From the NCBI RefSeq assembly GCF_900102795.1, contig NZ_FMWG01000007.1, forward strand, positions 1 through 64,000: DNA of 64,000 bases, read 5' to 3'. The notes under the pieces were generated by a model. It was not told where the DNA came from, ran no database searches, and worked only from the letters and a program-made list of their open reading frames with translations. Shown here in pieces: positions 8,085 through 31,110 of the stretch. Made by a program: the position numbers and the translations under genes. Each line of letters opens with the position of its first letter. Position 1 is the stretch's first letter. Origin of the DNA: Epibacterium ulvae. Lineage in GTDB: Bacteria > Pseudomonadota > Alphaproteobacteria > Rhodobacterales > Rhodobacteraceae.

Positions 8085-8096
8085 TTAATTGCTTCC

Positions 8097-9973: not shown

Positions 9974-9995
9974 CCAGCCCACCCGAGCGGGCCGG
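9974..9995 (-). terminator. Hairpin between tctA and the dehydrogenase gene
   Basis: The arms CCAGCCC and GGGCCGG can form a 7-bp stem with one mismatch and an 8-base loop. It lies after the tctA stop and before the dehydrogenase start on the minus strand. A strong T-run is lacking, so it may be a processing or partial-termination site that sets transporter against enzyme levels. Confidence 0.35.
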
Positions 9996-10011
9996 TATTT
10001 TGGGGAAGAGA

Positions 10012-11553
10012 TCAGTCGCCGACAAATTCTTCGGTGTCGCGCATGGATTCCATGCGTTTTTTCATGCGGCGACCCATCAGCATTGGCAGAACAAAGCCAG
10101 CAATCGCGATCATCCAAAGCACGATGGCCAGAGGGCTACCGACAAGGATGAACCAGTCACCATCTGAGATTGTCATCGCACGACGCAGGTTCACTTCCAT
10201 CTGGTTGCCCAGCAGGATGCCAAGAATGACCGGTACAAGGGATACATCCAGCTTACGCAGAAGCCAGCCCGCGATACCAAAGCCAACCATCAACATCACA
10301 TCGAAGGCAGAGCCTGTGATACTGTAGATACCCACAAAGGAAATCATCGCAACGATCGGCATCAGGATCCGTGTTGGCACCATCAAAACGCGAGTGAAGA
10401 TACCAACCAGAGGGATATTCATTGCCAGCAAGATGAAGTTCGCAAGGAACAGCGCCGCAATCAGGCCCCAAACAATGTCTGGGTTTTTGGTGAACAGCAG
10501 CGGACCCGGTGTGATGTTCAGCTGTAGAAGAACAGCCAGAAGAACCGCGGTTGTCCCAGAGCCTGGAACACCCAGCGCGAGCATTGGAACCAGCGCACCA
10601 CCAGATGCTGCGTTGTTACCCGCTTCTGGGGCTGCGACGCCACGCGGGTCGCCCTTTCCGAAGGAACTGCCGTCGCGGTCAACTGCTTGTTTTTCCAGCG
10701 AGTATGCAAGGAAGGAACCCAAAGAAGCCCCCGCGCCCGGCAGAACGCCAGAGAAAAAGCCAAGCCCCGTACCACGTGCCATTGACGGGATACATTTCTT
10801 GATCATGCCGAAGTCAGGCATAATACGGCCAACTTTTGCGGCCTTGGGCGCAACTCCCTGATTGCTGCGGTGATGCTCAAGGAAGATGAACACTTCGCTC
10901 AAAGCAAACAGGCCAACAATTGCGATCAGGAAGTCGATACCGTCATACAAGTGTACGTGGTCGAATGTGAAACGCTGCGAGCCAGTCTGGCTGTCGCTGC
11001 CGATCATGGCGATGCCCAGACCCAGCGCTGCCGCAAATGCAGATTTGGCTTGGTTGGTAGATGAGATGCCCCCAAGAGTTGCGAAAGCAACGGTGAAGAG
11101 TACGAAGTATTCCGCAGGACCAAACAGCAGTGCGATTTTCACAAGCTGTGGTGCCAGGAGAACCAGACCACATGTCGCAACAAATGCACCGACGAAAGAT
11201 GCTACGCCTGAAAGCGAGAGGGCTTCCCCCGCCTTGCCTTGCTGTGCCATCGGGTAGCCATCAAGACAGGTCATCATCGCGGGTTCATCGCCCGGAATAT
11301 TGAGAAGGATCGAAGAGATCCGACCACCGTACATCGCGCCGTAGTAAACGCTGACGAGCAGGATCAAGGACCCAGTTGGGTCAAGACCCAGTGAGAACGC
11401 GATCGGGATAAGGATCGCAACGCCGTTTGCTGGGCCAAGACCTGGAAGCGCCCCCATCAGGGTCCCCAGGAAACAGCCAACAACTGCGAGAAATAGGTTT
11501 GTCGGCGTCAGAGCAACCGCGAAACCGTCACCTAGAAGTGAGAAAATTTCCAT
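10012..11553 (-). CDS. tctA: Tripartite tricarboxylate transporter large membrane subunit
   Basis: The 513-residue protein is the TctA family size and is strongly hydrophobic, with about 11-12 membrane segments. Family landmarks include MGALPGLGPANGVAILIP near residues 33-50, PGDEPAMMTCLDGYPMA and GVLPGAGASLGSFLAYSLEK, the duplicated glycine-proline loops typical of TctA. It should form the sodium- or proton-coupled channel subunit in the inner membrane, with TctB. It is followed on the strand by the dehydrogenase-to-aconitase genes, which links uptake to catabolism. It belongs to the same transcription unit as tctC and tctB. Confidence 0.93.
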   Translation of the reverse strand: MEIFSLLGDGFAVALTPTNLFLAVVGCFLGTLMGALPGLGPANGVAILIPIAFSLGLDPTGSLILLVSVYYGAMYGGRISSILLNIPGDEPAMMTCLDGYPMAQQGKAGEALSLSGVASFVGAFVATCGLVLLAPQLVKIALLFGPAEYFVLFTVAFATLGGISSTNQAKSAFAAALGLGIAMIGSDSQTGSQRFTFDHVHLYDGIDFLIAIVGLFALSEVFIFLEHHRSNQGVAPKAAKVGRIMPDFGMIKKCIPSMARGTGLGFFSGVLPGAGASLGSFLAYSLEKQAVDRDGSSFGKGDPRGVAAPEAGNNAASGGALVPMLALGVPGSGTTAVLLAVLLQLNITPGPLLFTKNPDIVWGLIAALFLANFILLAMNIPLVGIFTRVLMVPTRILMPIVAMISFVGIYSITGSAFDVMLMVGFGIAGWLLRKLDVSLVPVILGILLGNQMEVNLRRAMTISDGDWFILVGSPLAIVLWMIAIAGFVLPMLMGRRMKKRMESMRDTEEFVGD

Positions 11554-11564
11554 TGTTTGTGTCC

Positions 11565-11996
11565 TTAGAAGCCCAACGGGCCTTCAGCCAATGCGAGGCC
11601 AAGAATTAGGTGGAAAACAACGTAGATACCGACAGATGTCCCAACGCCCGACACCAGAGACCAAAGAGGTGCTGTGCCCAAGCGCCATGTTAGATAGGCG
11701 GTTGCGAAGGTCGTGGAAAAAACAAACCCAAACTCTGGCAGCGCTAGACAATAGGCAAACATGACTACCGCTGCGAATACTATCTCTGCAAAGGCGTGTA
11801 CATGAGGCCAATCTGGCTCGTCATCTGGACGGATGATGAAGTATATGGAACAAAGAGCAACTATGCTGCCTACGATGTATGGAAAGGCACGCGGCCCGAC
11901 CACATCAACCATGAAGCTGTCTTCGATTGTAGATGCGGCCCAAATATAGAAGATGGCCAAAGCCAATCCAAAGCCGCCAAAAACGCGGTCACTCAT
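11565..11996 (-). CDS. tctB: Tripartite tricarboxylate transporter small membrane subunit
   Basis: The 143-residue protein has four predicted membrane segments and the TctB pattern (small first helix, GPRAFPYIVG loop, C-terminal pair of helices). It lies between tctC and tctA, 11 bases from the latter. Small TctB proteins are poorly conserved, so the call rests on size, hydrophobicity and position. Confidence 0.88.
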   Translation of the reverse strand: MSDRVFGGFGLALAIFYIWAASTIEDSFMVDVVGPRAFPYIVGSIVALCSIYFIIRPDDEPDWPHVHAFAEIVFAAVVMFAYCLALPEFGFVFSTTFATAYLTWRLGTAPLWSLVSGVGTSVGIYVVFHLILGLALAEGPLGF

Positions 11997-12020
11997 TTCT
12001 TCTTCCCTTATGTGGAAATG

Positions 12021-12051
12021 TGGGCTGACCTGATTTTCGCAGACCAGCCCA
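12021..12051 (-). terminator. Hairpin downstream of tctC
   Basis: Perfect 7-bp arms TGGGCTG and CAGCCCA flank a 17-base loop between the tctC stop and the tctB start. Such hairpins after binding-protein genes often stabilise the upstream message or partly terminate, giving more binding protein than membrane subunits. The same arrangement recurs at the other importers of this window. Confidence 0.45.
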
Positions 12052-12070
12052 TCAAACAGTCAGCCGTGGC

Positions 12071-13051
12071 TTACTTGATGATACCGATCTCGCGGGACAG
12101 CTTCTCAACGTCAGCAATGCTGCCCGCTACGAAATTGTACATGTCATCACCAAAGTTATTGAACGGAGCGATCGCAGCCGCTTCCAACTCTGCCTGGAAT
12201 TCTGGATTTTCCGTCAGGGTTTTGATTGCGTTGGACCAGAACTCTTTCGCTTCATCAGATGAACCTGCGGGCATATAGAGACCGCGCCAGTTTGCGCCCA
12301 CGACGTCATAGCCAAGCTCTTTTGCAGTTGGGATATCAGGGTAATTCTTCAAACGCTCAGGTGCCATGATACCAACGATGCGAATATCACCGGATTCTAG
12401 GAAGCCCAGCATTTCGGAGAAGTCACCAGACAGCGCTTCGGTTGCGCCGGACAAAAGACCAGTCATCGCTTCCCCGCCACCGTCAAAGGAGACGTATTTC
12501 AGCTGGGTGACATCTTCCATACCTGCTTCTCTTGCAACCAGCATCGGTTTGATGTGGTCGAAGGAACCAACGGACGAACCACCCGCGATACCAACAGAAC
12601 GCGGATCTTTCAGTATGTCATCCATCATATCTGCGAGTGTTTGGTAAGGAGAGTCCGCGCGCACGGCGATCGCGCCGTATTCCGCACCAAAAGTTGCCAG
12701 GAAGTGGACGTCATCTTGGGTTGCGTTCTCATAAATGCCCTGAGCGATACGAGCGCTGGTGGACATAGACGCTGCAACGATCAGGTTGTTGTCGTCGTCA
12801 CGCTCTTTCGTGACGTGTGCGAAGGCAACACCGCCGCCACCACCAGACATGTTGGTGACCTGCATGGAATCTTCGATGATACCAAGGTCAAACAGATACT
12901 TCGCTGTCGTTCGGCAAATAAAATCCCAGCCACCACCAGGGTTGGATGGTGCGATACATTGCGGGCTTTCTGCCTTGAAGTCAGCAAAGGCGCTTGTAGC
13001 GCCCATCATCATGGTCGCGGAAACACCAGCGATTACGATCTTTCTAAACAA
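12071..13051 (-). CDS. tctC: Tripartite tricarboxylate transporter periplasmic binding protein
   Basis: This is a 326-residue TctC/Bug-family receptor with a cleavable signal peptide (MFRKIVIAGVSATMMMGATS, cut after AFA) and the ligand-loop pattern APSNPGGGWDFICR. The start is TTG at 13051, because GGGAGG lies 9 bases upstream and the signal peptide begins there; the longer open frame upstream would add an AT-rich leader that is really the promoter region. It delivers a carboxylate to TctAB. First gene of the minus-strand operon, it is transcribed away from the gntR-type regulator gene. The ligand is unknown. Confidence 0.9.
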   Translation of the reverse strand: MFRKIVIAGVSATMMMGATSAFADFKAESPQCIAPSNPGGGWDFICRTTAKYLFDLGIIEDSMQVTNMSGGGGGVAFAHVTKERDDDNNLIVAASMSTSARIAQGIYENATQDDVHFLATFGAEYGAIAVRADSPYQTLADMMDDILKDPRSVGIAGGSSVGSFDHIKPMLVAREAGMEDVTQLKYVSFDGGGEAMTGLLSGATEALSGDFSEMLGFLESGDIRIVGIMAPERLKNYPDIPTAKELGYDVVGANWRGLYMPAGSSDEAKEFWSNAIKTLTENPEFQAELEAAAIAPFNNFGDDMYNFVAGSIADVEKLSREIGIIK

Positions 13052-13104
13052 AATGTTTTTCCTCCCAGTTTTGCTAGACGAATCTTTGCCATGGCAAATT
13101 TGCA

Positions 13105-13324
13105 TATTGGAACTCAAAAAGCCAATATTAAATTGCATGTTAATATCCAAAAAACCAATTTTGAACAACTGATGCATGAGATATTCTCAATGAAATCAAT
13201 GATATTGGTAGCTACTTTATACCCGAAAATAAAAGTGGCCATGAATAATTTGGACATTACTACCAACATAACCAAAACAATTCTTCAGTTGAATTTTGGC
13301 TCTTGGATCGGCATAAAACCAATA
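13105..13324. promoter_or_regulatory. Divergent promoter region with TTGG-N11/12-CCAA dyads, probable GntR operators
   Basis: The 315 bases between tctC and the regulator gene are AT-rich. They contain TATTGG-N11-CCAATA at 13105-13127 and TTGG-N12-CCAATATA at 13303-13324, plus isolated ATTGG/CCAAT half-sites near 13150 and 13203. Dyads this regular in front of a divergent GntR gene are likely its binding sites. The spacing differs by one base between the two dyads, so the exact operator is inferred. Confidence 0.5.
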
Positions 13325-15584: not shown

Positions 15585-16187
15585 TTAGGTAAAACAATCA
15601 ATCATAGACTTGATTGCAACCATGCCCGGATCGTCCATACCTTTGGTTTTGTCCCCAAAAATACGTGCGCGACCAATTTTACAGGGCTGATCAAAGAACT
15701 CTATCAATGCGCCATCTGCAGCCTCAGCCGCTGCGGCCAGCGCATCTTGTGCAGACGTTTTTCCAGTGGTCGCTGCTATGACAGCCGTGAGCGAGTCCAG
15801 CATCGTTTTGTCACCAATGCTCGCGCCGCCCCGTGCAATCATCGCGTCCAGCGCGGCCTGCAAAAGGTCGGGTAAACGGTCCCATTCAATTTCCGTTTGG
15901 CCTTTGGTTTGTTTTGCAACTGCCATCAACGAAATACCCATCAGCGTGCCAAAAGACGAACCTGAAACCTTTGTCATGGCCTTAGCACAATCCATACATG
16001 CCATGCCAAAATCATCCGGCAGATCGTCAGAAACAGCAGCAATGTTTTTGAAACCATTCACCATGGTCACACCAAGATCTCCATCGCCCAAACGACCATC
16101 CAGCTCGTTCAGATGTGCACCCATTGGATCCACCTGGTCTGTGATTTTATTGATACCGATACGTAGAGTGTCTGTTGTAAGCGCCAC
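15585..16187 (-). CDS. dhaL: Dihydroxyacetone kinase-type subunit L (nucleotide-binding)
   Basis: The 200-residue DAK2-domain protein has the nucleotide/magnesium site DGRLGDGDLGVT with D30, D35 and D37 matching E. coli DhaL, plus GSSFGTLMG for phosphate contacts. With DhaK it transfers a phosphate to dihydroxyacetone or a related ketose. The start is GTG, preceded by GGGGGA, 2 bases after the dhaK stop. No DhaM (PTS phosphotransfer subunit) is encoded nearby, so the phosphate donor is open. The protein is 60-odd percent like the second DhaL at 61.5 kb by eye. Confidence 0.9.
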   Translation of the reverse strand: MALTTDTLRIGINKITDQVDPMGAHLNELDGRLGDGDLGVTMVNGFKNIAAVSDDLPDDFGMACMDCAKAMTKVSGSSFGTLMGISLMAVAKQTKGQTEIEWDRLPDLLQAALDAMIARGGASIGDKTMLDSLTAVIAATTGKTSAQDALAAAAEAADGALIEFFDQPCKIGRARIFGDKTKGMDDPGMVAIKSMIDCFT

Positions 16188-16189
16188 GG

Positions 16190-17185
16190 TTACTTCCCCC
16201 AGAATGGATTTTTGGCTGGAGCGGCCAGCAGCTGCTCCAGTTCATCGTCAAGTTTCATAAGCGAGATCGAGGCACCCGCCATTTCCATCGACGTGGCATA
16301 ATTTCCAACCAGTGGCTGGACGATTTCGATGCCTTTGTCTGAGAGAATACGGTTCACAGCCCGAAATAGGATATAAAGCTCCTCGGCAGGCGTTGCGCCT
16401 AGACCGTTGACCAGAACGGACACCCGGTCGCCTTTTAACAGGTCCAACTCGTCGGTCAGCTTGTGTAACAGCTCAGCTGCCAATTCATCAGCCGGCTTGT
16501 TCTTGCCGCGCCAAACGCCGGGCTCGCCGTGAATGCCCATACCAATTTCGATCTCATCGTCGGCAATTTCAAAAGTGACTTTGCCAGCCTGTGGCACAAT
16601 GCAAGATCCCAGCGCCACACCCATCGTGCGCGTATTCTGGCGCGCGCGATCTGCGCATGCGTAAACTTCGTCCAACGATTTACCAGCCTGTGCAGCGGCA
16701 CCCGCTACTTTGACCACATAGACCAAACCCGCAACGCCGCGACGCTTCTCGATCTCGTCAACACCTGCGCTGGCAACGTCATCATTGACGATGATCTGCT
16801 GGGTAGTGATGTCTTCCATGTCTGCGAATTCGCAAGCCATGGCAAAGTTCATCTTGTCGCCACCATAGTTGCCCACAACGCATAGCACGCCTTTCCCGGC
16901 GTCTGCAGATTTGATGGCTTCTAACATCGGGTTCATGTCGGGCGAAGCAAACACATCGCCAACTGCACAGGCGTCGAGCAAACCGTCGCCGACGTAACCC
17001 GCGAAAATCGGCAAGTGGCCGAACCCACCGCCCGATACAACACCAACGCGATCAACGCTGGCCGTTGGCTTGCGCAACAGTCGGCGGGTTTCACCATCGA
17101 TACGGAAAACGTCTGGATGTGCTGCCTCTAGGCCTTCGAGAGTTTCGTCAACGTAGTTGACGGCATCATTCATGATTTTCTTCAT
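16190..17185 (-). CDS. dhaK: Dihydroxyacetone kinase-type subunit K (substrate-binding)
   Basis: The 331-residue protein shows H57 (GGGFGHLP), D110 (NYGGDKMNF) and the covalent substrate His H219 (GMGIHGEPGV), all at DhaK positions. DhaK holds the ketose as a hemiaminal on the His while DhaL phosphorylates it. It is the first gene of dhaK-dhaL and divergent from an IclR gene whose putative operator (17271-17288) lies in the shared promoter. Related subunits also act on erythrulose, so a C4 ketose cannot be excluded. Confidence 0.92.
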   Translation of the reverse strand: MKKIMNDAVNYVDETLEGLEAAHPDVFRIDGETRRLLRKPTASVDRVGVVSGGGFGHLPIFAGYVGDGLLDACAVGDVFASPDMNPMLEAIKSADAGKGVLCVVGNYGGDKMNFAMACEFADMEDITTQQIIVNDDVASAGVDEIEKRRGVAGLVYVVKVAGAAAQAGKSLDEVYACADRARQNTRTMGVALGSCIVPQAGKVTFEIADDEIEIGMGIHGEPGVWRGKNKPADELAAELLHKLTDELDLLKGDRVSVLVNGLGATPAEELYILFRAVNRILSDKGIEIVQPLVGNYATSMEMAGASISLMKLDDELEQLLAAPAKNPFWGK

Positions 17186-18675: not shown

Positions 18676-19989
18676 TCAAAAGCCGTCAATTAGAGTGTCC
18701 AACTTATCCCGGAATGACATGGCAGGCGCTCCAAGTGGCAAAAGCTTTTTGGTGCCCCAGTGCAGCGGGATGGGGCTGACGGGCGTGACCGGAAATGGCA
18801 GGGTATTGTTTTGCGCGCCCATCGCTTTTCTGGCCAGCGCACGTCCCATCACGGATGTCATGGCAATACCACGCCCGCTAAACCCAACCGCCGCCAACAC
18901 TCCTGGTGCGGGTTCATGAAGATGCGGCATCATTTCGGTTGTTACAGCGATGCGACCGGCCCAAGCGGTTTCGATCTTTGACTGCCGCAACCGCGGGAAG
19001 ACCCGATGCAAACCATTGCGAAGACGCCCCAGGCCGCCAAGTGCGGCGGCTTGATCGGTGCTGCCAACACATCCAAAAATCAGCCGACGATCCCGGTCGT
19101 AACGCGCAAAGTAAATCGCCCGGCGAGTATCTGCGATTGTAACAGCATTTGGCAAAACCTGCTGTTGCAATTCAGCTGACAGCGGTTCGGTTGCAAGCGC
19201 AATACTGACCATTGGGAAGAAGGTTTGCTGCAGTCCAGGCCACAGACCATTGGTATACGCATTTGTCGTTAAGATGACTTGCTTGGCCACCACGCGGCCC
19301 TTCGCCGTCTTCAAATGCCATTGGCCACCCACGCGGTTCATTGCTGTAACCTTGCTGCTTTCAAACAGCTGCGCCCCCAAGCGTTCAGCCGCGCGGGCAT
19401 AGCCGTATGTCAGCGAAAGTGGCTGCACATGGCCACCTTTCTGATGGAACAGAGAGAACCCATATTCTGGGGATCCACATCTTTCCTGAGTCTGTTCTTT
19501 ACCCAGAAATTCGATCGGCGCTCCTGCTTTATTCCAGGCTTCTCCCAAAGAAATCAGACGCTTTTTCGCAGATTTACAATGGGCGGCCTGAACCCAGCCG
19601 TTTTGTTCAGCGTCGCAGTCGACATCGTATTTCCCAATGTCGTAGAACAACGCATCGGCAGACCCCAATGTTGTTTCAATCAACCTATTCGCCTGTTGCT
19701 TGCCAAATTTCTTGACCAGCTCTTCAGGCGTTGCACGCCAAATTGGGTTACATTGGCCGCCACTGCGACCCGACGCGCCCCAACCAATTTCCATCGTGTC
19801 CAGCACGGCAACAGTGGCACCTTCTTCAGCAAGTCCAATCGCTGTGCGGCACCCCGTCAGACCACCCCCGACGATCGCAAAGTCAACTTCGATATCTTCG
19901 GACAGAACCGAAGCCTTCGGTCGTTCAGCGGCAGTTCTGCGCCAATGGACTTCGTCAGTGCTTTGGGGGTTGAAGCTGTTGATTATCAT
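18676..19989 (-). CDS. FAD-dependent amine oxidoreductase (DAO family, PuuB/OrdL-like)
   Basis: The 437-residue protein has the FAD motif FAIVGGGLTGCRTAIGLAEE (about residues 34-53) and the OrdL/PuuB hallmark WGASGRSGGQ (about 69-78). The C-terminal FAD contact GFSGRGIAMTSVMG is also present. Relatives oxidise gamma-glutamylputrescine, glycine-type or other secondary amines to imines or aldehydes. It follows the TauABC-like transporter genes on the same strand after a 148-base gap with a nested hairpin. I infer that it oxidises the imported amine or a product of the hydroxylase. The exact substrate is unknown. Confidence 0.85.
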   Translation of the reverse strand: MIINSFNPQSTDEVHWRRTAAERPKASVLSEDIEVDFAIVGGGLTGCRTAIGLAEEGATVAVLDTMEIGWGASGRSGGQCNPIWRATPEELVKKFGKQQANRLIETTLGSADALFYDIGKYDVDCDAEQNGWVQAAHCKSAKKRLISLGEAWNKAGAPIEFLGKEQTQERCGSPEYGFSLFHQKGGHVQPLSLTYGYARAAERLGAQLFESSKVTAMNRVGGQWHLKTAKGRVVAKQVILTTNAYTNGLWPGLQQTFFPMVSIALATEPLSAELQQQVLPNAVTIADTRRAIYFARYDRDRRLIFGCVGSTDQAAALGGLGRLRNGLHRVFPRLRQSKIETAWAGRIAVTTEMMPHLHEPAPGVLAAVGFSGRGIAMTSVMGRALARKAMGAQNNTLPFPVTPVSPIPLHWGTKKLLPLGAPAMSFRDKLDTLIDGF

Positions 19990-20137: not shown

Positions 20138-21403
20138 TTAGCTCTTGCCTTTCCAAGGCACGAGGTGACGTTCAGCCCAGCGCATCATCATGTCGATGCC
20201 AAACCCGATCACGCCAATCAGGACGATGCCCATGATGACGATATCAGTGTTCTGGAACTTCGATGCCGTCATGATCATCATGCCTGCCCCTTGCTCAGCA
20301 GCGACAAGTTCAGCTGCGACAACGGTGCCCCAGCACACCCCCATCGCGACACGCGCACCGGTGAAGATTTCGGGCAACGAGTTGGGAATGATGACATGGC
20401 GCATGATTTGCCACTTTCTAGCGCCCAATGAATAGGCCGCATGCACTTTACTGATGTTGACGCCAGACACACCCGACCGCGCGGCAATAGCCATGATCCA
20501 CAGGGCTGCGAGGAACAGCAGGATGATTTTACCAGCCTCACCGATGCCCGCCCAAATGATGACGAGAGGGATCAATGCAAGTGGAGGAACAGGACGCATA
20601 AATTCGACAATGGGATCGAACCAACCCCGGAACCAGTTGCTAAGCCCCATGGCATACCCAAGAGGAATGCCAACCACCGCGCCAAGGATAAAGCCAAAAA
20701 CAACGCGATACAGCGAGAAGCCGAGGTGTTCCCAAATTGTGAAGTTCCGGAAACCTTCTTTGAAGATCTTGACCGTACGGTTCCACACAGTCTCGGGTGC
20801 AGGCAGGTAAAGCGACTCCATCTGAAGACCACGTGAGGGTTCAAAGTTTGGAGTGCCTTTGTCAGACAAAGTAACAGAACCGAAATCGAAATCGACAGTC
20901 TTGCCTGGGCCGGTAGGCTGACCGTTGATGGCAATAATTTTGGTGCCCTCTTTACGGCTTGTCTCATCATTTTTGTCCCAAGGGATCAGCACGGTTCGCC
21001 ACTGCGCCACAACAGCTGCGTCGTTTTTGGCGAACCCATCACCCGCAGGAACTTCAGGTTTTTCGACCGTCGCCTCACGGGGGTGAACCACAACGCGCAC
21101 CAACGCATCATCCGTCGCACCATCAGCCGTTTGCGCTGTGTAGGTGAACTCAGCCGTTCCTTCGAAAGCAGCGGGGGCGTGAAGGGGTTTTGGGACCAGT
21201 ACAGACCCCGTAAAGATACCCCAGATCAGGAAAATCGTGGCGATAGAAATAACACCGGCAATCCGGTTAGGACGCACCGCGCTTTCATCTCCGAAGGTGA
21301 CAGTTTTAAGCGAGGTATAGTCGCGGATACCTGCGCCTTGCAGTTTCGTCACCAAGTAGAAAGAGACAACAAAAACAGCGACGTAAATTAGGAATGGAGT
21401 CAT
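20138..21403 (-). CDS. ABC transporter permease, TauC/SsuC type, with a long N-terminal extension
   Basis: The C-terminal half (about residues 190-421) is a standard taurine/nitrate-type permease with the EAA loop AAYSLGARKWQIMRHVIIP. Normal TauC proteins are about 275 residues. Here two N-terminal membrane helices bracket nothing recognisable but are followed by about 130 soluble residues (roughly 75-180) rich in beta-type sequence such as FEGTAEFTYTAQTADGATDD, presumably periplasmic. It overlaps the ATPase gene start by 4 bases. It works with the neighbouring ATPase and binding protein. The class also carries pyrimidine precursors and other N-compounds, so taurine is not assumed. Confidence 0.87.
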   Translation of the reverse strand: MTPFLIYVAVFVVSFYLVTKLQGAGIRDYTSLKTVTFGDESAVRPNRIAGVISIATIFLIWGIFTGSVLVPKPLHAPAAFEGTAEFTYTAQTADGATDDALVRVVVHPREATVEKPEVPAGDGFAKNDAAVVAQWRTVLIPWDKNDETSRKEGTKIIAINGQPTGPGKTVDFDFGSVTLSDKGTPNFEPSRGLQMESLYLPAPETVWNRTVKIFKEGFRNFTIWEHLGFSLYRVVFGFILGAVVGIPLGYAMGLSNWFRGWFDPIVEFMRPVPPLALIPLVIIWAGIGEAGKIILLFLAALWIMAIAARSGVSGVNISKVHAAYSLGARKWQIMRHVIIPNSLPEIFTGARVAMGVCWGTVVAAELVAAEQGAGMMIMTASKFQNTDIVIMGIVLIGVIGFGIDMMMRWAERHLVPWKGKS

Positions 21404-22206
21404 TTTGAACCCTCCGAACGTCCCATGATTTCTTCTTCCATGTCCCAGATCATGCTAAGAATTTCTTCGCGCTTCACACCAAAGTCGGGGTGTTTCTTGA
21501 CCTCACGCAGGTCGGCCTCAACGCCAAGATCTGCAAAGGGCAGGCGATATTCGGTGTGAATACGTCCCGGCCGTGGTGCCATTACCAGCAGGCGCTCCCC
21601 CAGCAACAGGGCTTCTTCAACTGAGTGGGTGATCAGAATGATGGTCTTGCCGGTCTCTTTCCAAAGCTTCAAAACCAGCGACTGCATCTTTTCGCGTGTC
21701 AATGCATCTAGCGCGCCAAGCGGTTCGTCCATCAGGATCACATCCGGGTGGTTTGCAAGACAGCGGGCCAGAGCCACACGCTGCTGCATGCCACCGGACA
21801 ATTCGTAGATCGCTTTTTCCTTGAAATCTTGCAGACCTACGATTTCGAGAAGATGATCAACTTCATCTTTGTATTCCGCTTCACGCTGGCCCTGCATACG
21901 CGGGCCAAAACTGACGTTGTCGCGCACAGACATCCATTCAAACAGCGCTCCTTTTTGGAAAACCATTCCCCGGTCTGCGCTGGGCCCGTGAACAGCTTTA
22001 CCATTCAAAATGATACCGCCGCCACTTGGTGCCAGAAAGCCTGCAACGATATTTAGAAGTGTCGTTTTACCGCATCCAGAAGGACCCAGCACACTTAGCA
22101 ATTCCCCAGATTTGAGGTCCAAAGAGACATCCTGCAACGCTTGGACTGCACCACCGTTGGGTAGATCAAAGCTCATGGATAAATTTTGGATCGAAAGTCC
22201 AGTCAT
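21400..22206 (-). CDS. ABC transporter ATPase, TauB/SsuB type
   Basis: The 268-residue nucleotide-binding subunit has Walker A GPSGCGKTT, signature LSGGMQQRVALARCLA and Walker B VILMDEPLGALD. The start is ATG at 22206 with GGTGGGG just upstream, which matches the family N-terminus (MTGLSIQNLSMSF). The open frame extends further upstream but would include the intergenic hairpin side. It lies between the binding-protein and permease genes. Confidence 0.92.
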   Translation of the reverse strand: MTGLSIQNLSMSFDLPNGGAVQALQDVSLDLKSGELLSVLGPSGCGKTTLLNIVAGFLAPSGGGIILNGKAVHGPSADRGMVFQKGALFEWMSVRDNVSFGPRMQGQREAEYKDEVDHLLEIVGLQDFKEKAIYELSGGMQQRVALARCLANHPDVILMDEPLGALDALTREKMQSLVLKLWKETGKTIILITHSVEEALLLGERLLVMAPRPGRIHTEYRLPFADLGVEADLREVKKHPDFGVKREEILSMIWDMEEEIMGRSEGSK

Positions 22207-22264
22207 TCCCCACCTATCATATTTTTTTGAAAAGAAGCCATGCCGTCGCGAGGCAGGCAAAAGT

Positions 22265-23828: not shown

Positions 23829-24842
23829 ATGAAATCTTCGGAAACCAATATTGAACAAGTGCCGGCGGGCCAGTCAAAAGCTTGGAACTTTCATCCAAAG
23901 CTGCCGATCGACATGTCACCGATCTTTGACTTACCGCCAAAACCAAAGGCGTCTCTTAAATGGCTGCTTGGCACATGGCTCAAGTTTTCACCGCCTGTGA
24001 ACCACCTGATTTTTGCGCTGATCACAGTCTATTTCTTCATGCCAAGCCCCGAAGGAATGCAGCATTTCTCGGCAGATTGGATGCTCAAAATCACAGCAAT
24101 CCTTTTCGGCTCAATCATCCTGCTCGGGACAGCGCTCCATCTATACCTATATGTACTTGCGGGACAAAAAATGCGGCTCAAATTTGATGTGCGCCCAATG
24201 GAACGCAGTTCAAGATTTACGTTTGGGCATCAGGTTTGGGACAACGTGTTCTGGTCTTTGGCCTCTGGAGCGGTGTCACTGACCCTCTGGACGATCCTAT
24301 ACTTCTACTTGGCATCCAATGGATGGACACCGGCACTTGATACCTTTGGCTCATCTCCAGTCTGGTTCATTCTCTTCTTCTTTGTTCTGCGCTTTTGGCA
24401 GTCATTTCACTTTTACTGGATCCACCGCCTTGTTCATATTCCGTGGCTGTTTAAGACCGTACATCACCTGCACCATCGCAATGTAAACGTTGGTCCCTGG
24501 TCCGGTTTGGCCATGCACCCCGTCGAAAGCTTCTTCTACTTCTCCTCGATCTTGATCCATTTCGTGCTGCCCACGCACCCATTGCATGTGTTTTTCCACA
24601 TGTTCTCCCTCAGCCTTGGCGCTCTGATCTCCCATGCGGGTTTCGACAAGCTGCTGATCAGAGATAAGGAAACGCTGAACGCGGGCTCGTTCCACCATCA
24701 GCTGCATCACCGGTATTTTGAATGCAACTACGGGTCAGAAGAGATCCCGTTGGACCGTTGGTTCGGCAGTTTTCACGATGGCACTGAAGACGCCACACTA
24801 AGAATCCGCGCACGCAAAAAGCTCCTTTTTGCTCCTAAATGA
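23829..24842 (+). CDS. Membrane di-iron hydroxylase, sterol desaturase / fatty acid hydroxylase superfamily
   Basis: The 337-residue protein has about five membrane helices and the three histidine boxes of the superfamily: H199-RLV-H203, H212-H213-L-H215-H216, and H289-H290-QL-H293-H294. These bind two irons and use O2 to hydroxylate the substrate. The start at 23829 follows GGAG; a TTG at 23751 would place the operator inside the gene. It heads an operon with a PanB-like gene and a flavin/2Fe-2S reductase, the natural electron donor. Sterol or lipid substrates are not suggested by the neighbours; a small amine-bearing substrate imported by the divergent transporter is more plausible. Confidence 0.85.
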   Translation: MKSSETNIEQVPAGQSKAWNFHPKLPIDMSPIFDLPPKPKASLKWLLGTWLKFSPPVNHLIFALITVYFFMPSPEGMQHFSADWMLKITAILFGSIILLGTALHLYLYVLAGQKMRLKFDVRPMERSSRFTFGHQVWDNVFWSLASGAVSLTLWTILYFYLASNGWTPALDTFGSSPVWFILFFFVLRFWQSFHFYWIHRLVHIPWLFKTVHHLHHRNVNVGPWSGLAMHPVESFFYFSSILIHFVLPTHPLHVFFHMFSLSLGALISHAGFDKLLIRDKETLNAGSFHHQLHHRYFECNYGSEEIPLDRWFGSFHDGTEDATLRIRARKKLLFAPK

Positions 24843-24864
24843 CCCCAAACAAAGAAGACGTGAC

Positions 24865-25704
24865 ATGAAACATATCTATACATACGGCGGCAAATTCGCC
24901 CAACGCCACCTAACGGTTGGCTGCCTGATCCGCGCCAAAGCCCAAGGCAACAAGCTGACCCAAGTCACGGCCTTTGATGCAGGCGAAGCCGCGGCAGCGG
25001 CTGAACAAGGCATCGATACGCTCACCATCGATACCGCAACGATCGAAGAGATTCGAGCCGCGACCCCACATATCTTCATCACCGCAGCGCAGTCCATGCG
25101 TCAGTACGTGACCGAAGACGAAGCACTGGGCGGTGCCATTGACACGATGGCCAAAGGCGCGGACGCCATCTACTCTCCCCGTGGCCTGTCCACAATCGAA
25201 CGCATCGCCCGCGAAGGGATCAGCGTTCAGGGCCACACTGGCCTATTCCCTGCCCGCGCAACGCAGTTTGGCGGTCTGCGCACAGTCGGTAAGACTGCAG
25301 AAGAAGCGCTTAGCCTACTTGAAGATTTCCGCCGTCTAGAAGAGGCCGGTGCCTATTCTTGCGAAGTTGAATGCGTAGCAGAAGAAGCATTGGCTGAAAT
25401 CAAAAAACACTCCAACCTTGTGACCGTCACAATTGGAGCTGGGTCCTCTGGCGACATTATCTTGTCTTACATGTCTGACCTATGCGGCGACAACGACCAC
25501 CCGCCTCGCCACGCCAAAGCCTTTGGCGACGTGGGTTCCATTCGTAAGAAGCTGGTAGCAGAGCGCGCCAAAGCACTGGCGGGCTATCAGGCCGCTGTTA
25601 AAGACGGCTCATTCCCCGACAGAGCGACCTCTATTTCAATGTCGCCTATTGAATTGGAAAAGTTGAGAGAGGGTCTCGACAAACGCACTCCGGTTCATCA
25701 GTAG
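24865..25704 (+). CDS. PanB-like (ketopantoate hydroxymethyltransferase fold) protein with altered metal site
   Basis: The 279-residue protein aligns with PanB through TQVTAFDAG, ISVQGHTGLFP (about 119-129), EVECV (E169) and IGAGSSGD. Of the PanB magnesium/catalytic residues, only the late Glu (ECV) is kept. The GDS aspartate is replaced by TIDTAT, the ADLPF aspartate by TAAQSM, and the KIEGG glutamate by YSPRG. Pantothenate synthesis is thus unlikely; this is a PEP-mutase-superfamily barrel with another reaction. A retro-aldol or C1-releasing step is conceivable. The ATG at 24865 is 22 bases after the hydroxylase stop. Confidence 0.75.
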   Translation: MKHIYTYGGKFAQRHLTVGCLIRAKAQGNKLTQVTAFDAGEAAAAAEQGIDTLTIDTATIEEIRAATPHIFITAAQSMRQYVTEDEALGGAIDTMAKGADAIYSPRGLSTIERIAREGISVQGHTGLFPARATQFGGLRTVGKTAEEALSLLEDFRRLEEAGAYSCEVECVAEEALAEIKKHSNLVTVTIGAGSSGDIILSYMSDLCGDNDHPPRHAKAFGDVGSIRKKLVAERAKALAGYQAAVKDGSFPDRATSISMSPIELEKLREGLDKRTPVHQ

Positions 25705-25715
25705 AAAGCGGACCA

Positions 25716-26675
25716 ATGGCACTGATCAACGTTAAAGTCGAAAAAGTCATTGAAGAGGCGGAGGGCGTAAAAGCCTTCCTCCTTGCCAAATCTGGTTTTT
25801 TCAACCTCCCCCACTACACAGCCGGGTCTCATATTGATGTCCATTGTGGCAAAGGCATCATTCGCCAGTACTCACTGTGTGGCATGCCTGACGACCGCAA
25901 ACACTATATGATTGCAGTCAAACGCGAAGACACCTCACGGGGCGGCTCCGAACAAATGCACGACGAGATCGTTATCGGCCAAGCTCTTGAAATCGGTAGC
26001 CCGCGCAACAACTTCCCGCTGGATGAGGCTGCATCGCATGTCACGCTGCTTGCAGGTGGAATTGGCATCACCCCGATTATTGCGATGGCGGACCGGCTAC
26101 ACACACTCAGCATTCCGTTCGAACTGCACTATTTTTCCAGATCGGATCAACACGCAGCCTTTCGGGACCGGATGCAATCAGGTGGCTATGCATCAAGCGT
26201 CAAGTTTCACTTTGGACTAGATGTTCCGCAGACAACTGAATGCCTCCGCTCGATCTTCAAACAGCGCCCAACTGAGGGGCAGACCTACATTTGCGGACCC
26301 GGGCCGTTTATGGATTCCGCTGAAAAGATTGCAGGTCAAAACTGGCCGACGGACTCCATCCATTTGGAACGGTTTTCAGCAAACCCAGCGTTGGCTAGCG
26401 GCACGACCAAACCCTTCACCTTAGAACTGGCACAATCCGGTTTGACCTTTGAGATTGGAGCAAATGAAACCATCCTGAACGTGTTGGAAGAGAACGACTT
26501 CGAAGCACCGTTTTCTTGTGAACAGGGTGTTTGCGGCACGTGTGTCACAGACGTGATCGCTGGTACTCCTGAGCATCGCGACAGTTTCTTGAACGAGAAA
26601 GATCGCGCATCCGGTAAACGAATGTGCATCTGCGTTTCCAGAGCGGCTGGTAGAAAAATAACACTGGATTTGTAA
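25716..26675 (+). CDS. PDR/VanB-family oxidoreductase (FMN/NAD domain plus 2Fe-2S ferredoxin domain)
   Basis: The 319-residue phthalate-dioxygenase-reductase-type protein has the flavin motif RQYSL (50-54), the NAD motif GGIGITP (114-120), CGPGPFM (193-199), and a C-terminal plant-type ferredoxin. The cluster ligands of this ferredoxin are C268, C273, C276 and C304 or C306. It passes electrons from NAD(P)H to an oxygenase. No Rieske oxygenase is present, so the partner is inferred to be the di-iron hydroxylase two genes upstream. This pairing is unusual, because most VanB-like reductases serve Rieske enzymes. Confidence 0.88.
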   Translation: MALINVKVEKVIEEAEGVKAFLLAKSGFFNLPHYTAGSHIDVHCGKGIIRQYSLCGMPDDRKHYMIAVKREDTSRGGSEQMHDEIVIGQALEIGSPRNNFPLDEAASHVTLLAGGIGITPIIAMADRLHTLSIPFELHYFSRSDQHAAFRDRMQSGGYASSVKFHFGLDVPQTTECLRSIFKQRPTEGQTYICGPGPFMDSAEKIAGQNWPTDSIHLERFSANPALASGTTKPFTLELAQSGLTFEIGANETILNVLEENDFEAPFSCEQGVCGTCVTDVIAGTPEHRDSFLNEKDRASGKRMCICVSRAAGRKITLDL

Positions 26676-26991: not shown

Positions 26992-28035
26992 TCAGACACT
27001 TGAGAGCGTCTGCGCTACGATATCGAACACCCGCCGATTCACGGCCCATTGTTCGATGTTCACCTCAGATGTAGCGGATATCATTTGAATGCTCACTGGC
27101 CTGCCATCAATGCGCCCACGCAGACTTAAAACTGTATGGGCCCGTTCCTGCCAGCGTGCCTCAAATTGCACCACTTCAAAATCTCCCTGAGTTCCCTGCC
27201 CCACAGTAGAAGACGTCATGAACATCGCCCCCTGCGCGGAGAGTTTATCAAGCACAATTGCCTCCAAGGCAGTTGCATGTGTTTCACGATCCCCCCCCAG
27301 AACCGCAATCAATGTCCCAAGGTTGGACTTATGGTTATGTTGAATAAAATGAAGCGCTGCCCCATCTCGGGGCGCATCAATCCCCTCCACGGCGGTCCAA
27401 CTTACAGGCAATAAAAACGAAGCAGAGACCCTAGCTCCCTGCAGGCTTTGTCTGGTCATCTCTTCAGCGAAGTATCGACCGGAGGGCGAAAGCAGGGAAA
27501 AGCGACTGCATGCCAAGAGACCAATTTCTTGCAGCATAGGATCTTTTGGATCAGAATCTGGCCGCGCAGACCCGTCAACCAAAAATAAGTGGTTCCCATC
27601 TTTGATTGTCAGCATGCGATGAAGACGGCCATCATGGCTGAGAGCCACGGCATCTCCCATCAAGCCATAAGCCGTTGGAAGTTCACGCAAATCTACAAGG
27701 GACCATCCTTGGCTTGACGCAAAGGCACGCAACCAATCTGCGCCATTCAAAACGCGTTCCAAATACGCACCATAAACAACGACCTTGGCATCCAAATCAC
27801 TTCCGACAGCGCCTTTATGACCAGGTGTAAAGCGCGCTATCGGCACCACTGGCCTTTCAACGCTTGGAATGATGTCTTCCCCTGCAGTGTCTACGCCCCA
27901 CAGTTTTGGAAGTGCAATCCGAAAGGCCCCCGCTGGAAAAATTCCGTCTTGAACCCTTGCTTCCATAAACGCTTTTTCAATCTCTGCTTTAGACGAGACC
28001 GGGTTCGTAAGAAGTTTAATATTAGGATCAATCAT
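26992..28035 (-). CDS. Uncharacterised cytoplasmic protein, possibly two DcrB/PsbP-like domains
   Basis: The 347-residue protein has no signal peptide or membrane helix. I do not recognise the family with certainty. Two stretches (about 35-185 and 195-347) each contain an FxxxLPxxW-like strand followed by alternating strands and end in a long helix. This pattern resembles DcrB/Mog1/PsbP folds, including the DUF1795 chaperones (Eag) that load secretion effectors. It is the last of three genes with a phospholipase effector candidate, 15 bases after the middle gene. Chaperone, adaptor or immunity functions are possible but unproven. Confidence 0.5.
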   Translation of the reverse strand: MIDPNIKLLTNPVSSKAEIEKAFMEARVQDGIFPAGAFRIALPKLWGVDTAGEDIIPSVERPVVPIARFTPGHKGAVGSDLDAKVVVYGAYLERVLNGADWLRAFASSQGWSLVDLRELPTAYGLMGDAVALSHDGRLHRMLTIKDGNHLFLVDGSARPDSDPKDPMLQEIGLLACSRFSLLSPSGRYFAEEMTRQSLQGARVSASFLLPVSWTAVEGIDAPRDGAALHFIQHNHKSNLGTLIAVLGGDRETHATALEAIVLDKLSAQGAMFMTSSTVGQGTQGDFEVVQFEARWQERAHTVLSLRGRIDGRPVSIQMISATSEVNIEQWAVNRRVFDIVAQTLSSV

Positions 28036-28050: not shown

Positions 28051-29034
28051 TTAAAGTAAACTTGGCCGATCTCGAGTATCAAACTTTGGCCCTATACTGA
28101 GATCAAAATTACCTTCCAACCCGATTAACACGGCAGCATCTGCGCCGACACCAACATGTAGCCGGTTGTTTTCATGATCAAAATAAGCATGCCCTCCCCC
28201 TCCCGCGGAAATCGCACCAACTGATACCGTGCTTTTCGCCTTCACCGAAACACTAAGATCTGTAAAGGGAACTGGGAAATTTAGTTCTGCTTTTATACCA
28301 CCCGTTGCCGCAGACGCCCCGACATATCCACCCAACGCAAGACCTGTACGTTTACCGTCTGATCCCAAGAGTGCCTCACTTTTTAGATCCGCAGCGGCCA
28401 AATCATAAGCCGCCCCAACCTCTAAAATCGGATTGTTCGCGTCTTTACCCACGAATAAGCTGCCTTCTTGCTTGGCCACCCGTGCTTCCGCATCAACACG
28501 CATGCCGACACCCTGATCAATGCTCAGATGACCTTCGACAGTTGCATTGACCAAGTTAAGCTCATGCGCACCACCAAAGACGCCCTTGTCGTCAATATGA
28601 CCTTGATGCTCTTGACGCAGTACACCAGTCTCAAGTTCGCCCTCAGCAGATAGATTTCCGACTGTCGCAGTGGCCTCGGTATATAAACGACTTACTGAAT
28701 TTACATTACTCTCTGCGTCAGAAACTGACCGACTTTGGCCAATTGCCCCATATTGTTGAGCATCACCTTCGGCGCGCGGCAAGGAAGCCGGGCTTGTAAG
28801 TGCCTCTTGGGTCTCATGAGATCGTGGGAAAGGTGTGGCCTGTATATTTCTGTTGAGAGCTTCTCCAAAAACTTGACTTTGTGCGACAAGATCTAGAGCA
28901 GGAGAATTTGGAGAGTGGCCCGGCACACTCGAAGGTCTCACTCTAGCTGGCTGCTCAGAGTTTTGAGGTTGGGGTCTGGTTTCAATAGAAGAAGCCCCCT
29001 GCGAGACAGGGTCGAAGCTACCAGGTACCTTCAT
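28051..29034 (-). CDS. Uncharacterised protein with disordered N-terminus and glycine-rich beta-type C-terminus
   Basis: Residues 1-110 of the 327-residue product are rich in Pro, Ser and Gln with no structure evident. Residues 115-327 alternate short acidic/hydrophobic strands with glycines (GVGMRVDAEARVAKQEGSLF, LALGGYVGASAATGGIKAEL), a pattern seen in surface or secreted toxin-like proteins of several polymorphic systems. No catalytic motif was found. The ATG at 29034 follows AGGA by 10 bases; a GTG at 29043 is too near that site. Located between the patatin-like gene and the 347-aa gene. Function unknown; a secreted substrate or partner is an inference. Confidence 0.55.
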   Translation of the reverse strand: MKVPGSFDPVSQGASSIETRPQPQNSEQPARVRPSSVPGHSPNSPALDLVAQSQVFGEALNRNIQATPFPRSHETQEALTSPASLPRAEGDAQQYGAIGQSRSVSDAESNVNSVSRLYTEATATVGNLSAEGELETGVLRQEHQGHIDDKGVFGGAHELNLVNATVEGHLSIDQGVGMRVDAEARVAKQEGSLFVGKDANNPILEVGAAYDLAAADLKSEALLGSDGKRTGLALGGYVGASAATGGIKAELNFPVPFTDLSVSVKAKSTVSVGAISAGGGGHAYFDHENNRLHVGVGADAAVLIGLEGNFDLSIGPKFDTRDRPSLL

Positions 29035-29163
29035 TATCGGCACGTCCTAAAATGTATGGAATCGTCAGCCATTATACCTTTGGCCTCAAGTGATCAAAAA
29101 AAGCCGTTTCAAAATATGAGCTTACATCCCACCGCCCCTTTCACACACAGCAACCATGCGGGC

Positions 29164-31110
29164 TCATGACGACAAAAGTTCAAAAAGCACCTTCGATGCC
29201 TCAAATGCCCGCAGACCGTCTACGTCGCCTTCCTGTATATTTGCAGTGTGCATCTCGGGTGGACCATGTTCTAAAATAGCCACTTTTTCCGCCTCGGAGA
29301 GATGTGGAATAATATCTGCAACGTTCTGAACATCAACTAAAACGGGTTCAGAGAATCTTTGCCGGATTTGGTTGGCAGTGTCCAAGGAAGCCAACATTTG
29401 CGCCTGCGCAAGTTTTGAAGCTGACGGCTTCGTCTCTCCGCCACCAATCCCACCTTCATTCGCAATCAAAACAGGGTTGTTATAAGTCTTTTGTCGATCA
29501 GCGGTCACACCTTCTGCAGAGAACCCAACGAACTTGCGGGCTGGATCAATACGCGATTGAATCAAAGCCTCAGGAGAACCAGACAACAAGGCCTGCGTTG
29601 TGCCATTACGCGCGAAACTGATGTTGAGTGTCGAAGCTTTTTTCATCGATATATCAATCGTATGTTCGGATCCCTCTGGCGTCGGGTTTCGTGCAATCTC
29701 TTTGGCCTCTTCCATACGTGTCTTGCTTTCCAGATCACTTAAGTGAGGCAAGTCAAGCATTGCGGCTTCAGTTGGTTGAACAGACCCCATACCCCCATCT
29801 GCAAAAGTGCTGTCACCCGCCCCAACTTCGGCGTCAAAATGGATCGGCTTCATCAATCCAAGCATTGCAATTGAACTGCGAGCTGCAAAAGCCAACGGCA
29901 TGTCCGGTGTCGTGGATCGAGAGAATATAACACCTTCCTGATTGTCCATATCAAAACCAGTCAGACTCAGCTCTTTGAATGTTTCTGGCATCATATGGTG
30001 CAAAATAGACTGATCTTTAAACGTCACCATTTGACCGGTCCGGGCACCAGACATAGAGCCTTCCATTAGAGTGTTTATTCGTTCTTTAATCTCGTCCAAC
30101 GGTATTTTGCTACCAACAGAGGCTTGCTCCATCTTGGCTTCCTGCTCATCAGGAGTGAGTTTATCAAGCGCGCCTTGAAGACGCTGCGTCGTAAAGCTAT
30201 CCAAAATCTTTACGACTTGTTCGGCACCCCCCCCCGCAGAAATCACATGCTTTGCAGCGAACCGCGCAACACTATCTACCGCTGTAAGTGCCGACTTAGA
30301 CTTTGAAAAGAAATGCGCCTGTGGGTAGTTTGCAGCGGTATCGGGATCATCCAGCAGGCCTCCCTGTACGGCATCCACAATATTGTTCATTTCTTCAGCA
30401 GAAGCGTCATAAGCAATCGCGATCGCAGCCAAGGACCCTGCCGATGTGCCCGCAATCATTTTCAATCCATCCAGCTGGGACAGGGATTTCAATTCATTGA
30501 TCACTTCCGGCAATATCAAACCTTTTGCACCACCCCCACTGATTGCAATCGTTTCAACATCACGCGGTGCCAGTATTACGCTTAATGTGCCATCAGGCTT
30601 CGCAAGAAACTGCGGGATCTGGCCGCTCTTAGGGCGCGCATGGGAGAGCACTGCGAGATCTTTTTTCACCGTGTCATAAACCGACTTCAAATCAATTGCC
30701 TGATCAAAGGCACGAACCACCATTTTAGCAGATCGCGGCAGCTTAACCTTGGCTGCTTGTACATTGTCTTCAGCCTCGTCGGGGTTGCTTTGCTCAAGCA
30801 CTCCTTGTGCGACTTGTTGGAAATACGAACGACTGCCCTCTCCATAAACCGCGACCATATCATCGACGCGCGTTTCTAGAGCCTGCTGAAGATGTTTTTC
30901 TCCAAAGTCAAAACCTGGTAGTTTTGAATTTAGTTTCGACACGACACTGGCTGCGGCGTTGCGCCACAGACTTTTGCTACTTACCGATGCGTCATTTGGC
31001 ACTGCAGGAGCAGCCCTTGTGCTTTGTCGCACGGGTGCAGTATCTAAATTATTTTGAACATTCGAAAGGCGGGGGACACCCAATCCTAAATTAATTTTAT
31101 CTGTAACCAT
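29164..31110 (-). CDS. Patatin-like phospholipase, ExoU-type organisation (candidate secreted effector)
   Basis: The 648-residue protein carries a patatin catalytic domain after an N-terminal region of about 185 residues. The oxyanion loop SGGGAKG (191-197), the nucleophile motif GTSAG (S223) and the ADGG motif (D438) form the Ser-Asp dyad. The distance of 215 residues between Ser and Asp is close to that of ExoU, whose domain is also split by an insertion. There is no signal peptide, as expected for a type III/IV/VI-type effector or an intracellular lipase. The C-terminal 200 residues are of unknown type. It is the first gene of the three-gene set and lies beside an IS5 scar, which suggests acquisition. 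Confidence 0.8.
   Translation of the reverse strand: MVTDKINLGLGVPRLSNVQNNLDTAPVRQSTRAAPAVPNDASVSSKSLWRNAAASVVSKLNSKLPGFDFGEKHLQQALETRVDDMVAVYGEGSRSYFQQVAQGVLEQSNPDEAEDNVQAAKVKLPRSAKMVVRAFDQAIDLKSVYDTVKKDLAVLSHARPKSGQIPQFLAKPDGTLSVILAPRDVETIAISGGGAKGLILPEVINELKSLSQLDGLKMIAGTSAGSLAAIAIAYDASAEEMNNIVDAVQGGLLDDPDTAANYPQAHFFSKSKSALTAVDSVARFAAKHVISAGGGAEQVVKILDSFTTQRLQGALDKLTPDEQEAKMEQASVGSKIPLDEIKERINTLMEGSMSGARTGQMVTFKDQSILHHMMPETFKELSLTGFDMDNQEGVIFSRSTTPDMPLAFAARSSIAMLGLMKPIHFDAEVGAGDSTFADGGMGSVQPTEAAMLDLPHLSDLESKTRMEEAKEIARNPTPEGSEHTIDISMKKASTLNISFARNGTTQALLSGSPEALIQSRIDPARKFVGFSAEGVTADRQKTYNNPVLIANEGGIGGGETKPSASKLAQAQMLASLDTANQIRQRFSEPVLVDVQNVADIIPHLSEAEKVAILEHGPPEMHTANIQEGDVDGLRAFEASKVLFELLSS

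What the first reader, a model, noticed from the sequence alone, without database searches (positions are those of the whole stretch)
23829..26675. Possible new monooxygenase system: membrane di-iron hydroxylase, altered PanB-like enzyme and PDR-type reductase
PDR/VanB reductases usually serve Rieske oxygenases; here the only oxygenase is a sterol-desaturase-type hydroxylase with complete His boxes. The PanB-like protein has lost three of four metal/catalytic residues, so it probably performs a different lyase or C1-transfer reaction. The combination with an amine oxidase and DhaKL is, to my knowledge, undescribed.
Basis: partly seen in the sequence, partly recalled or inferred. Interest (0 to 1): 0.75.

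Follow-up and report, generated by a model that had tools for sequence, protein, structure and literature searches.

The report
PanB-like partner of iron monooxygenases
Three adjacent genes encode a membrane iron hydroxylase, its likely reductase and an enzyme resembling, but distinct from, a vitamin-B5 enzyme; relatives of the last sit beside unrelated oxygenases in many bacteria, so together they may strip methyl groups from small molecules and pass the carbon to folate.

Summary
In detail: a compact + strand run of a sterol-desaturase/fatty-acid-hydroxylase-type di-iron protein (23829-24842), a PanB-like protein (24865-25704) and a phthalate-dioxygenase-reductase-type reductase (25716-26675). 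The PanB-like protein is not PanB: the genome has a true PanB elsewhere, and of 95 PanB-like sequences none keeps more than two of five ketoacid/metal residues (E. coli D45, S46, D84, K112, E114; 15 of 16 true PanB keep all), while H136 and E181 stay and a new Glu and His are invariant.

The set is one case of a wider pattern. Of 80 loci chosen by a PanB-like hit, 65 have an iron oxygenase within 3 kb on the same strand (true-PanB loci: 0 of 18). The partner is of three unrelated kinds, with single cases beside a P450 and a luciferase-like monooxygenase, and switches at least 12 times on the PanB-like tree. In rhizobia the run is mocD-mocE-reductase-panB-like, in Sinorhizobium fredii NGR234 followed by purU (formyl-THF deformylase); purU abuts in 4 of 97 loci.

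Best reading: an oxidative demethylation module whose PanB-like enzyme handles the C1 unit, probably onto tetrahydrofolate. The folate step and substrate are inferred. A close relative with oxygenase and reductase but no PanB-like gene argues against strict necessity.

The parts
23829..24842 (+). Membrane di-iron hydroxylase of the fatty-acid-hydroxylase/sterol-desaturase superfamily (PF04116), 337 aa; an upstream TTG at 23751 gives the longest frame
   Evidence: no solved-structure match at E<=1
24865..25704 (+). PanB-like protein, 279 aa, PanB fold with altered active site; predicted C1-handling partner of the oxygenase
25716..26675 (+). Phthalate-dioxygenase-reductase-type reductase with C-terminal [2Fe-2S] domain, 319 aa
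22297..23289 (-). TauA-like substrate-binding protein (141 bits to TIGR01729, below its 304 cutoff); divergent from the three-gene run
21400..22260 (-). TauB-like ABC ATPase
20138..21403 (-). TauC-like ABC permease
18676..19989 (-). FAD amine oxidase (PF01266), nearest NCBIfam model L-pipecolate oxidase, below cutoff
   Evidence: conserved in L003, L005, L039, L188, L189
18173..18679 (-). Small cupin (PF05899)
   Evidence: conserved in L003, L005, L039, L188
17385..18167 (+). IclR-family regulator
16190..17185 (-). Dihydroxyacetone-kinase-type subunit DhaK (PF02733)
15585..16187 (-). DhaL subunit (PF02734)

Best explanation
The three genes form an oxidative demethylation (dealkylation) module. 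The reductase passes electrons from NAD(P)H through flavin and a [2Fe-2S] centre to the membrane di-iron hydroxylase, which hydroxylates a methyl group on O or N of a small imported molecule, giving a hemiacetal or hemiaminal (X-CH2OH). The PanB-like enzyme then handles that one-carbon unit, most likely by moving it to tetrahydrofolate as 5,10-methylene-THF: PanB chemistry run towards THF, with a hydroxymethyl on O or N instead of on the carbon of ketopantoate. The demethylated amine then goes to the FAD amine oxidase, and its carbon skeleton to the dihydroxyacetone-type kinase. Shown by computation: gene order, families, PanB fold, loss of the ketoacid/metal residues, recurrent and swapping association with monooxygenases, conserved local context, purU beside some relatives. 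Inferred: that methyl groups are the site of attack, that the C1 acceptor is THF, and the substrate. Own estimates: oxygenase-reductase pair 0.85; demethylation 0.6; THF as acceptor 0.5 (0.45 before one search confirmed the four purU genes).
Against: L188, a close relative of the locus (oxygenase 70% identical; same TauABC, IclR, amine oxidase, cupin and reductase), has no PanB-like gene there and none at E<=1e-30 in its genome. 15 of 80 loci scored no iron oxygenase within 3 kb. In a phylum sample 21 of 34 MocD-type places lack a PanB-like neighbour, and an Acidiphilium mocD-mocE-reductase run has none. No FolD or FTHFS was found near (the MTHFR and GcvT queries there were defective). purU adjacency is 4 loci of 97. 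The control loci come mostly from the window's own genus, not from the genomes of the PanB-like set. No active-site coordinates were available. A precedent warns against neighbour logic: a conserved dehydrogenase beside a P450 demethylase proved not to act in formaldehyde detoxification (PMC10033563, abstract and passages).
Confidence: 0.5

Rival explanations
1. The PanB-like protein is a lyase or hydrolase that cleaves a carbon-carbon or carbon-heteroatom bond of the hydroxylated skeleton itself, without folate, as members of the wider PEP mutase/isocitrate lyase superfamily do.
Confidence: 0.25
2. The PanB-like protein is an accessory protein that assembles or protects the oxygenase, or traps formaldehyde without folate.
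For: Very close linkage with many oxygenases; a system without it exists (L188).
Against: A maturation factor would not be expected to serve di-iron, Rieske, P450 and flavin enzymes alike; a set of invariant polar residues points to catalysis.
Confidence: 0.12
3. Substrate rival: the di-iron protein is an ether-cleaving hydroxylase like alkylglycerol monooxygenase, acting on a glyceryl ether such as a betaine-lipid head group, and DhaKL takes the glycerol-derived part.
For: PF04116 superfamily (membership of alkylglycerol monooxygenase is recalled); DhaKL beside it in window, L039 and, as a fused kinase, L003.
Against: L188 lacks DhaKL in the stretch read but keeps oxygenase, reductase, amine oxidase and transporter; does not explain the PanB-like partner in sugar/inositol-type loci.
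Confidence: 0.1
4. It is a second pantothenate-pathway PanB.
For: Relatives are annotated as 3-methyl-2-oxobutanoate hydroxymethyltransferase.
Against: True PanB on contig C30 at 316.7 bits; none of 95 relatives keeps K112 or E114; far below the panB cutoff.
Confidence: 0.02

Closest known systems
Ketopantoate hydroxymethyltransferase PanB (TIGR00222; structures 1m3u, 1o68, 3vav)
   Different: Lacks the D45/S46/D84/K112/E114 set; adds invariant E167 and H216 and near-invariant D100 and R64 (ATG numbering); sits with monooxygenases; the genome has a separate PanB
MocDEF ferredoxin oxygenase of rhizopine catabolism
   Same: Three-component oxygenase; mocD-like operons in Rhizobium and S. fredii carry a PanB-like gene
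   Different: MocD-like proteins are of the fatty-acid-desaturase family with a Rieske ferredoxin and FAD reductase; here a PF04116 hydroxylase with a PDR-type reductase. Whether the experimentally studied moc operons carry a PanB-like gene was not checked
Glycine betaine monooxygenase GbcAB and vanillate demethylase VanAB (recalled)
   Same: Oxidative demethylation driven by a flavin/[2Fe-2S] reductase; the reductase scores weakly to GbcB (71.6 bits, cutoff 500)
   Different: Their oxygenases are Rieske enzymes, and as far as I recall no PanB-like protein is part of them
P450 demethylase of 6-O-methyl-D-galactose (PMC10033563)
   Same: Monooxygenase plus redox partners releasing formaldehyde from a methoxy sugar in marine bacteria
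   Different: No PanB-like partner in the passages read; the paper reports that the adjacent dehydrogenase is not involved in formaldehyde detoxification

Membership tests
PanB (ketopantoate hydroxymethyltransferase) | Score over the curated panB cutoff | tested here: not met
   84.8 of 207.55 bits; own genome's true PanB 316.7 bits
PanB (ketopantoate hydroxymethyltransferase) | Metal and ketoacid residues D45, S46, D84, K112, E114 (roles recalled) | tested here: not met
   Of 95 PanB-like rows: D45 in 23, S46 in 5, D84 in 1, K112 and E114 in 0; none keeps more than two. Of 16 true PanB rows 15 keep all five and one keeps three
PanB (ketopantoate hydroxymethyltransferase) | PanB fold and catalytic Glu181 | tested here: met
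PanB (ketopantoate hydroxymethyltransferase) | Use of 5,10-methylene-THF | not testable with these tools
   Needs biochemistry; purU adjacency in 4 of 97 loci is circumstantial
Fatty acid hydroxylase/sterol desaturase superfamily (PF04116) | Pfam model and the HX3H, HX2HH, HX2HH histidine boxes | tested here: met
   68.6 bits against 31; boxes conserved in an alignment of 29
Phthalate-dioxygenase-reductase-type reductases | N-terminal flavin/NAD module and C-terminal plant-type [2Fe-2S] domain | tested here: met
   Near full-length match to 2pia, 4.5e-63; cysteine motif and Fer2
MocDEF rhizopine oxygenase | Fatty-acid-desaturase-type oxygenase with a MocE Rieske ferredoxin | tested here: not met
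   Window oxygenase is PF04116; the genome has no match to the MocD query at 1e-60
Oxidative demethylases (function) | Release of a methyl group as a C1 unit | not testable with these tools
   Inferred from relatives' contexts

The most novel reading that the evidence does not exclude
PanB-like proteins are an unrecognised family of folate-dependent hydroxymethyltransferases that take the C1 unit directly from the hemiacetal or hemiaminal made by a monooxygenase, so that free formaldehyde is avoided. The same enzyme would serve as an interchangeable plug-in for up to five structurally unrelated monooxygenase families.
Probability: 0.3. Interest if true: 0.85.

Novelty: new variant of a known kind. 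Interest (0 to 1): 0.66.

Why it matters
Genes now annotated as pantothenate-pathway PanB would be renamed where they go with monooxygenases. If the C1 reading holds, it gives a folate route for methyl groups cleaved by oxygenases, at a step where toxic formaldehyde is normally expected, in marine bacteria and root symbionts, which are thought to live in part on methylated osmolytes and methyl-inositols (general knowledge). The prediction is directly testable with a small protein, expected to be soluble, and a standard folate assay.

Tried and rejected
True PanB function: rejected on residues, score and the separate PanB. PanB-oxygenase fusions: the long frames carry only the PanB-like match among the seven profiles tried, so I read them as over-long open frames. 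FolD and FTHFS near PanB-like loci: none found. Homarine catabolism as a known match: none of the 3 papers nor the 20 listed is a paper on its pathway. Taurine as the substrate: TauA is below the taurine cutoff and taurine has no methyl group; not adopted. Mycosporines and betaine lipids were thought of as substrates from memory only; the second is kept as a rival. Searches for a paper linking a PanB-like gene to an oxygenase demethylase: 20 of 78 listed; 20 of 81; 20 of 42; 2 of 2; 12 of 194; no listed title or abstract start showed one. The lists were cut and the library holds open-licence PMC papers only, so absence there is weak. Promoter and terminator scan: no more hits than in shuffles.

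Weaknesses of counts: the oxygenase profiles were built from proteins first found in set 1, so detection leans to those types; the same profiles were used on the control. The 80 regions come from 128 places other than the window listed (my count), mostly but not strictly the better-scoring ones; the rest were not fetched. Several places share a genome. One region (L042) holds two PanB-like genes and was counted once. One of 19 controls (L175) was shorter than the script's length limit and was dropped. ORFs were called mechanically in high-GC loci. The tree is a quick one with 24 of 94 inner branches open, and each locus was labelled by its nearest oxygenase although some have two types. Of 117 operon neighbours found, 111 were given.

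Full report
What is there. The window lies on contig C13 of a 4.0 Mb, 30-contig genome. The three ORFs are present on the + strand and closely packed: a PF04116 hydroxylase (23829-24842), a PanB-like protein (24865-25704, start chosen because most homologues begin there) and a PDR-type reductase (25716-26675). The hydroxylase has the full set of histidine boxes, conserved in an alignment of 29. The reductase is a near full-length relative of phthalate dioxygenase reductase and of the reductase part of two P450 entries. The run diverges from tauABC-like genes, beyond which lie a FAD amine oxidase, a cupin, an IclR regulator and DhaKL.

The pattern in other genomes. PanB-like relatives occur in 73 of 394 genomes sampled from the family at E<=1e-30, 15 of 398 in a phylum sample at E<=1e-28 and 2 of 18 in the genus, the own genome included each time. 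I took the surroundings of 80 of these places. With profiles made from neighbours, an iron oxygenase lies within 3 kb in 29 of 40 (set 1) and 36 of 40 (set 2); all 65 are on the same strand and 56 are within 500 bp, while only 5 of the 80 loci have such a gene further away. Of 19 true-PanB loci, 18 could be scored and none has one within 3 kb. Of the 6 genome-contig loci, 3 have a PF04116 neighbour. Among loci scored 'none', L121 (set 2) has a P450 and a [2Fe-2S] ferredoxin, and L008 a luciferase-like monooxygenase. Others carry sugar-type genes (RbsD/FucU, xylose-isomerase-like, DUF1537-type kinase) or showed nothing clear among the neighbours scanned. On a quick tree of 97 PanB-like sequences the nearest oxygenase type needs at least 12 changes when 'none' is left out. 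In one clade (L040-L045) Rieske, MocD-type and PF04116 partners replace one another.

Named relatives give a hint of chemistry. Two Rhizobium plasmids carry mocD-like, mocE-like, FAD reductase and PanB-like genes in a row. Rhizobium sp. Kim5 has MocD-like, MocE and PanB-like beside ABC transport genes, and Marivivens has them beside transport and iol genes. mocDEF belong to rhizopine catabolism, one rhizopine being 3-O-methyl-scyllo-inosamine (PMC10107442, passages read; its reference list names Bahar 1998, 'a ferredoxin oxygenase complex', which I did not read). O-demethylation by MocDEF is recalled. An Acidiphilium plasmid has MocD-like, MocE and reductase without a PanB-like gene. Mesorhizobium and Bradyrhizobium plasmids have PanB-like, PF04116-type ('sterol desaturase family'), ferredoxin and FAD reductase genes in one run. 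The M. amorphae copy has ProX, enolase-superfamily, proline-racemase-type, DHDPS-type and aldehyde dehydrogenase genes within about 12 kb; reading that as methylated hydroxyproline use is inference. In the phylum sample 13 of 19 PanB-like places lie within 2.5 kb of a MocD-type place, but 21 of 34 MocD-type places have no PanB-like neighbour (my count).

Link to folate. Scanning 111 operon neighbours gave two formyl-transferase-domain proteins. One, in L149, is 41 bp from the PanB-like gene. Searching all loci with it, similar genes lie next to PanB-like genes in L149, L130 and L092 (Sinorhizobium fredii NGR234) on the same strand and in L150 convergently. All four score over the equivalog cutoff for PurU, formyltetrahydrofolate deformylase (324.7-334.8 bits against 285.95). 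In L092 the row is mocD-mocE-reductase-panB-like-purU, and L149 has the same set on one strand. Two further matches are more distant (L160, L144), and none of the 18 scorable controls has one. FolD and FTHFS were not found near; the MTHFR and GcvT queries failed. FAD-GcvT-type demethylase genes lie 2.8-4.6 kb away in L061, L067 and L046, with weak matches closer in L061 and L062, but one also lies near a control, L178. The own genome has FTHFS and FolD together on C20 and ten strong GCV_T matches.

The close relatives of this locus. L039 has TauA, DhaL, DhaK, IclR, amine oxidase, cupin, oxygenase, PanB-like and reductase in one cluster. L003 has the three-gene run opposite cupin, a more distant amine oxidase and a fused Dha kinase, with a TauC-like gene further off. 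L005 has TauABC-like genes, amine oxidase, cupin, oxygenase and PanB-like. L004 has only the three genes of the set. L188 has TauABC, IclR, amine oxidase, cupin, oxygenase and reductase but neither PanB-like nor DhaKL in the 19.5 kb read; a class III aminotransferase lies beside the cupin. The oxygenase is therefore the constant part, the reductase nearly so, and the PanB-like gene is frequent but not obligatory. PF04116 relatives at E<=1e-40 are in 124 of 394 family genomes, more than have PanB-like genes, and in L191 one sits with acyl-CoA dehydrogenase, CoA ligase and enoyl-CoA hydratase genes.

How it most likely works. A three-part oxidative demethylase: reductase, di-iron hydroxylase and a PanB-like enzyme that takes up the C1 unit, most likely onto THF. 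The argument is that the PanB-like protein stays while the oxygenase and the gene context change, so it should act on what they share; that PanB's known reaction is hydroxymethyl transfer from methylene-THF (PMC7770189, passage; PMC4814558, abstract and passages); and that purU, a folate C1 enzyme, turns up next to it. What is kept from PanB lies away from the ketoacid/metal ligands in sequence; taking the kept part as the folate side is inference. A neighbour-based guess of formaldehyde detoxification has failed before in a similar setting (PMC10033563, abstract and passages).

Known or new. No listed paper linking a PanB-like gene to an oxygenase demethylase appeared; the lists were cut and the library is limited to open-licence papers. 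I file the family as a new variant within a known fold, and the module as a variant of oxidative demethylation with an extra partner.

Noticed in passing
52526-62076: A second DhaKL pair (60474-62076) with a FAD oxidoreductase (59198), IclR regulator, glycine-betaine-type ABC transporter (54418-58082), SDR and iron-type alcohol dehydrogenase; it parallels the first DhaKL locus and suggests two amine substrates feeding the same kind of kinase.
   Followed up: partly
29164-31110: Patatin-like phospholipase domain protein (PF01734), 648 aa, with two neighbouring ORFs (26992-28035, 28051-29043) that match no Pfam family at 1e-5.
   Followed up: no
6160-13177: DUF1537-type kinase and isocitrate/isopropylmalate-dehydrogenase-type genes, with ORFs that look like an aldolase and tripartite tricarboxylate transport genes (by eye), resembling a four-carbon sugar-acid pathway (recalled).
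   Followed up: no
L191 8621-14624, L192 8760-15759: PF04116 oxygenases (tandem in L192) followed by acyl-CoA dehydrogenase, CoA-ligase-type and enoyl-CoA hydratase genes (families scanned in L191 only), with no PanB-like gene in the stretch; a different pathway using the same oxygenase family.
   Followed up: partly
L040 11640-14934, L041 6410-9716, L042 1471-4733, L043 2145-5407, L065 10184-13467: Adenine-deaminase-type and AMP-nucleosidase-type genes near the PanB-like/oxygenase cluster in five loci (one member of each cluster scanned).
   Followed up: no
L081 8343-8966: Phaeobacter plasmid locus with an inositol-oxygenase-family protein directly before the PF04116-type oxygenase and PanB-like gene.
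   Followed up: no
L087 11673-16982, L089 11705-17027: The rhizobial mocD-mocE-reductase-panB-like run is followed by nadA and nadC (nadB too in L087) and lies near cob genes on Rhizobium plasmids.
   Followed up: no
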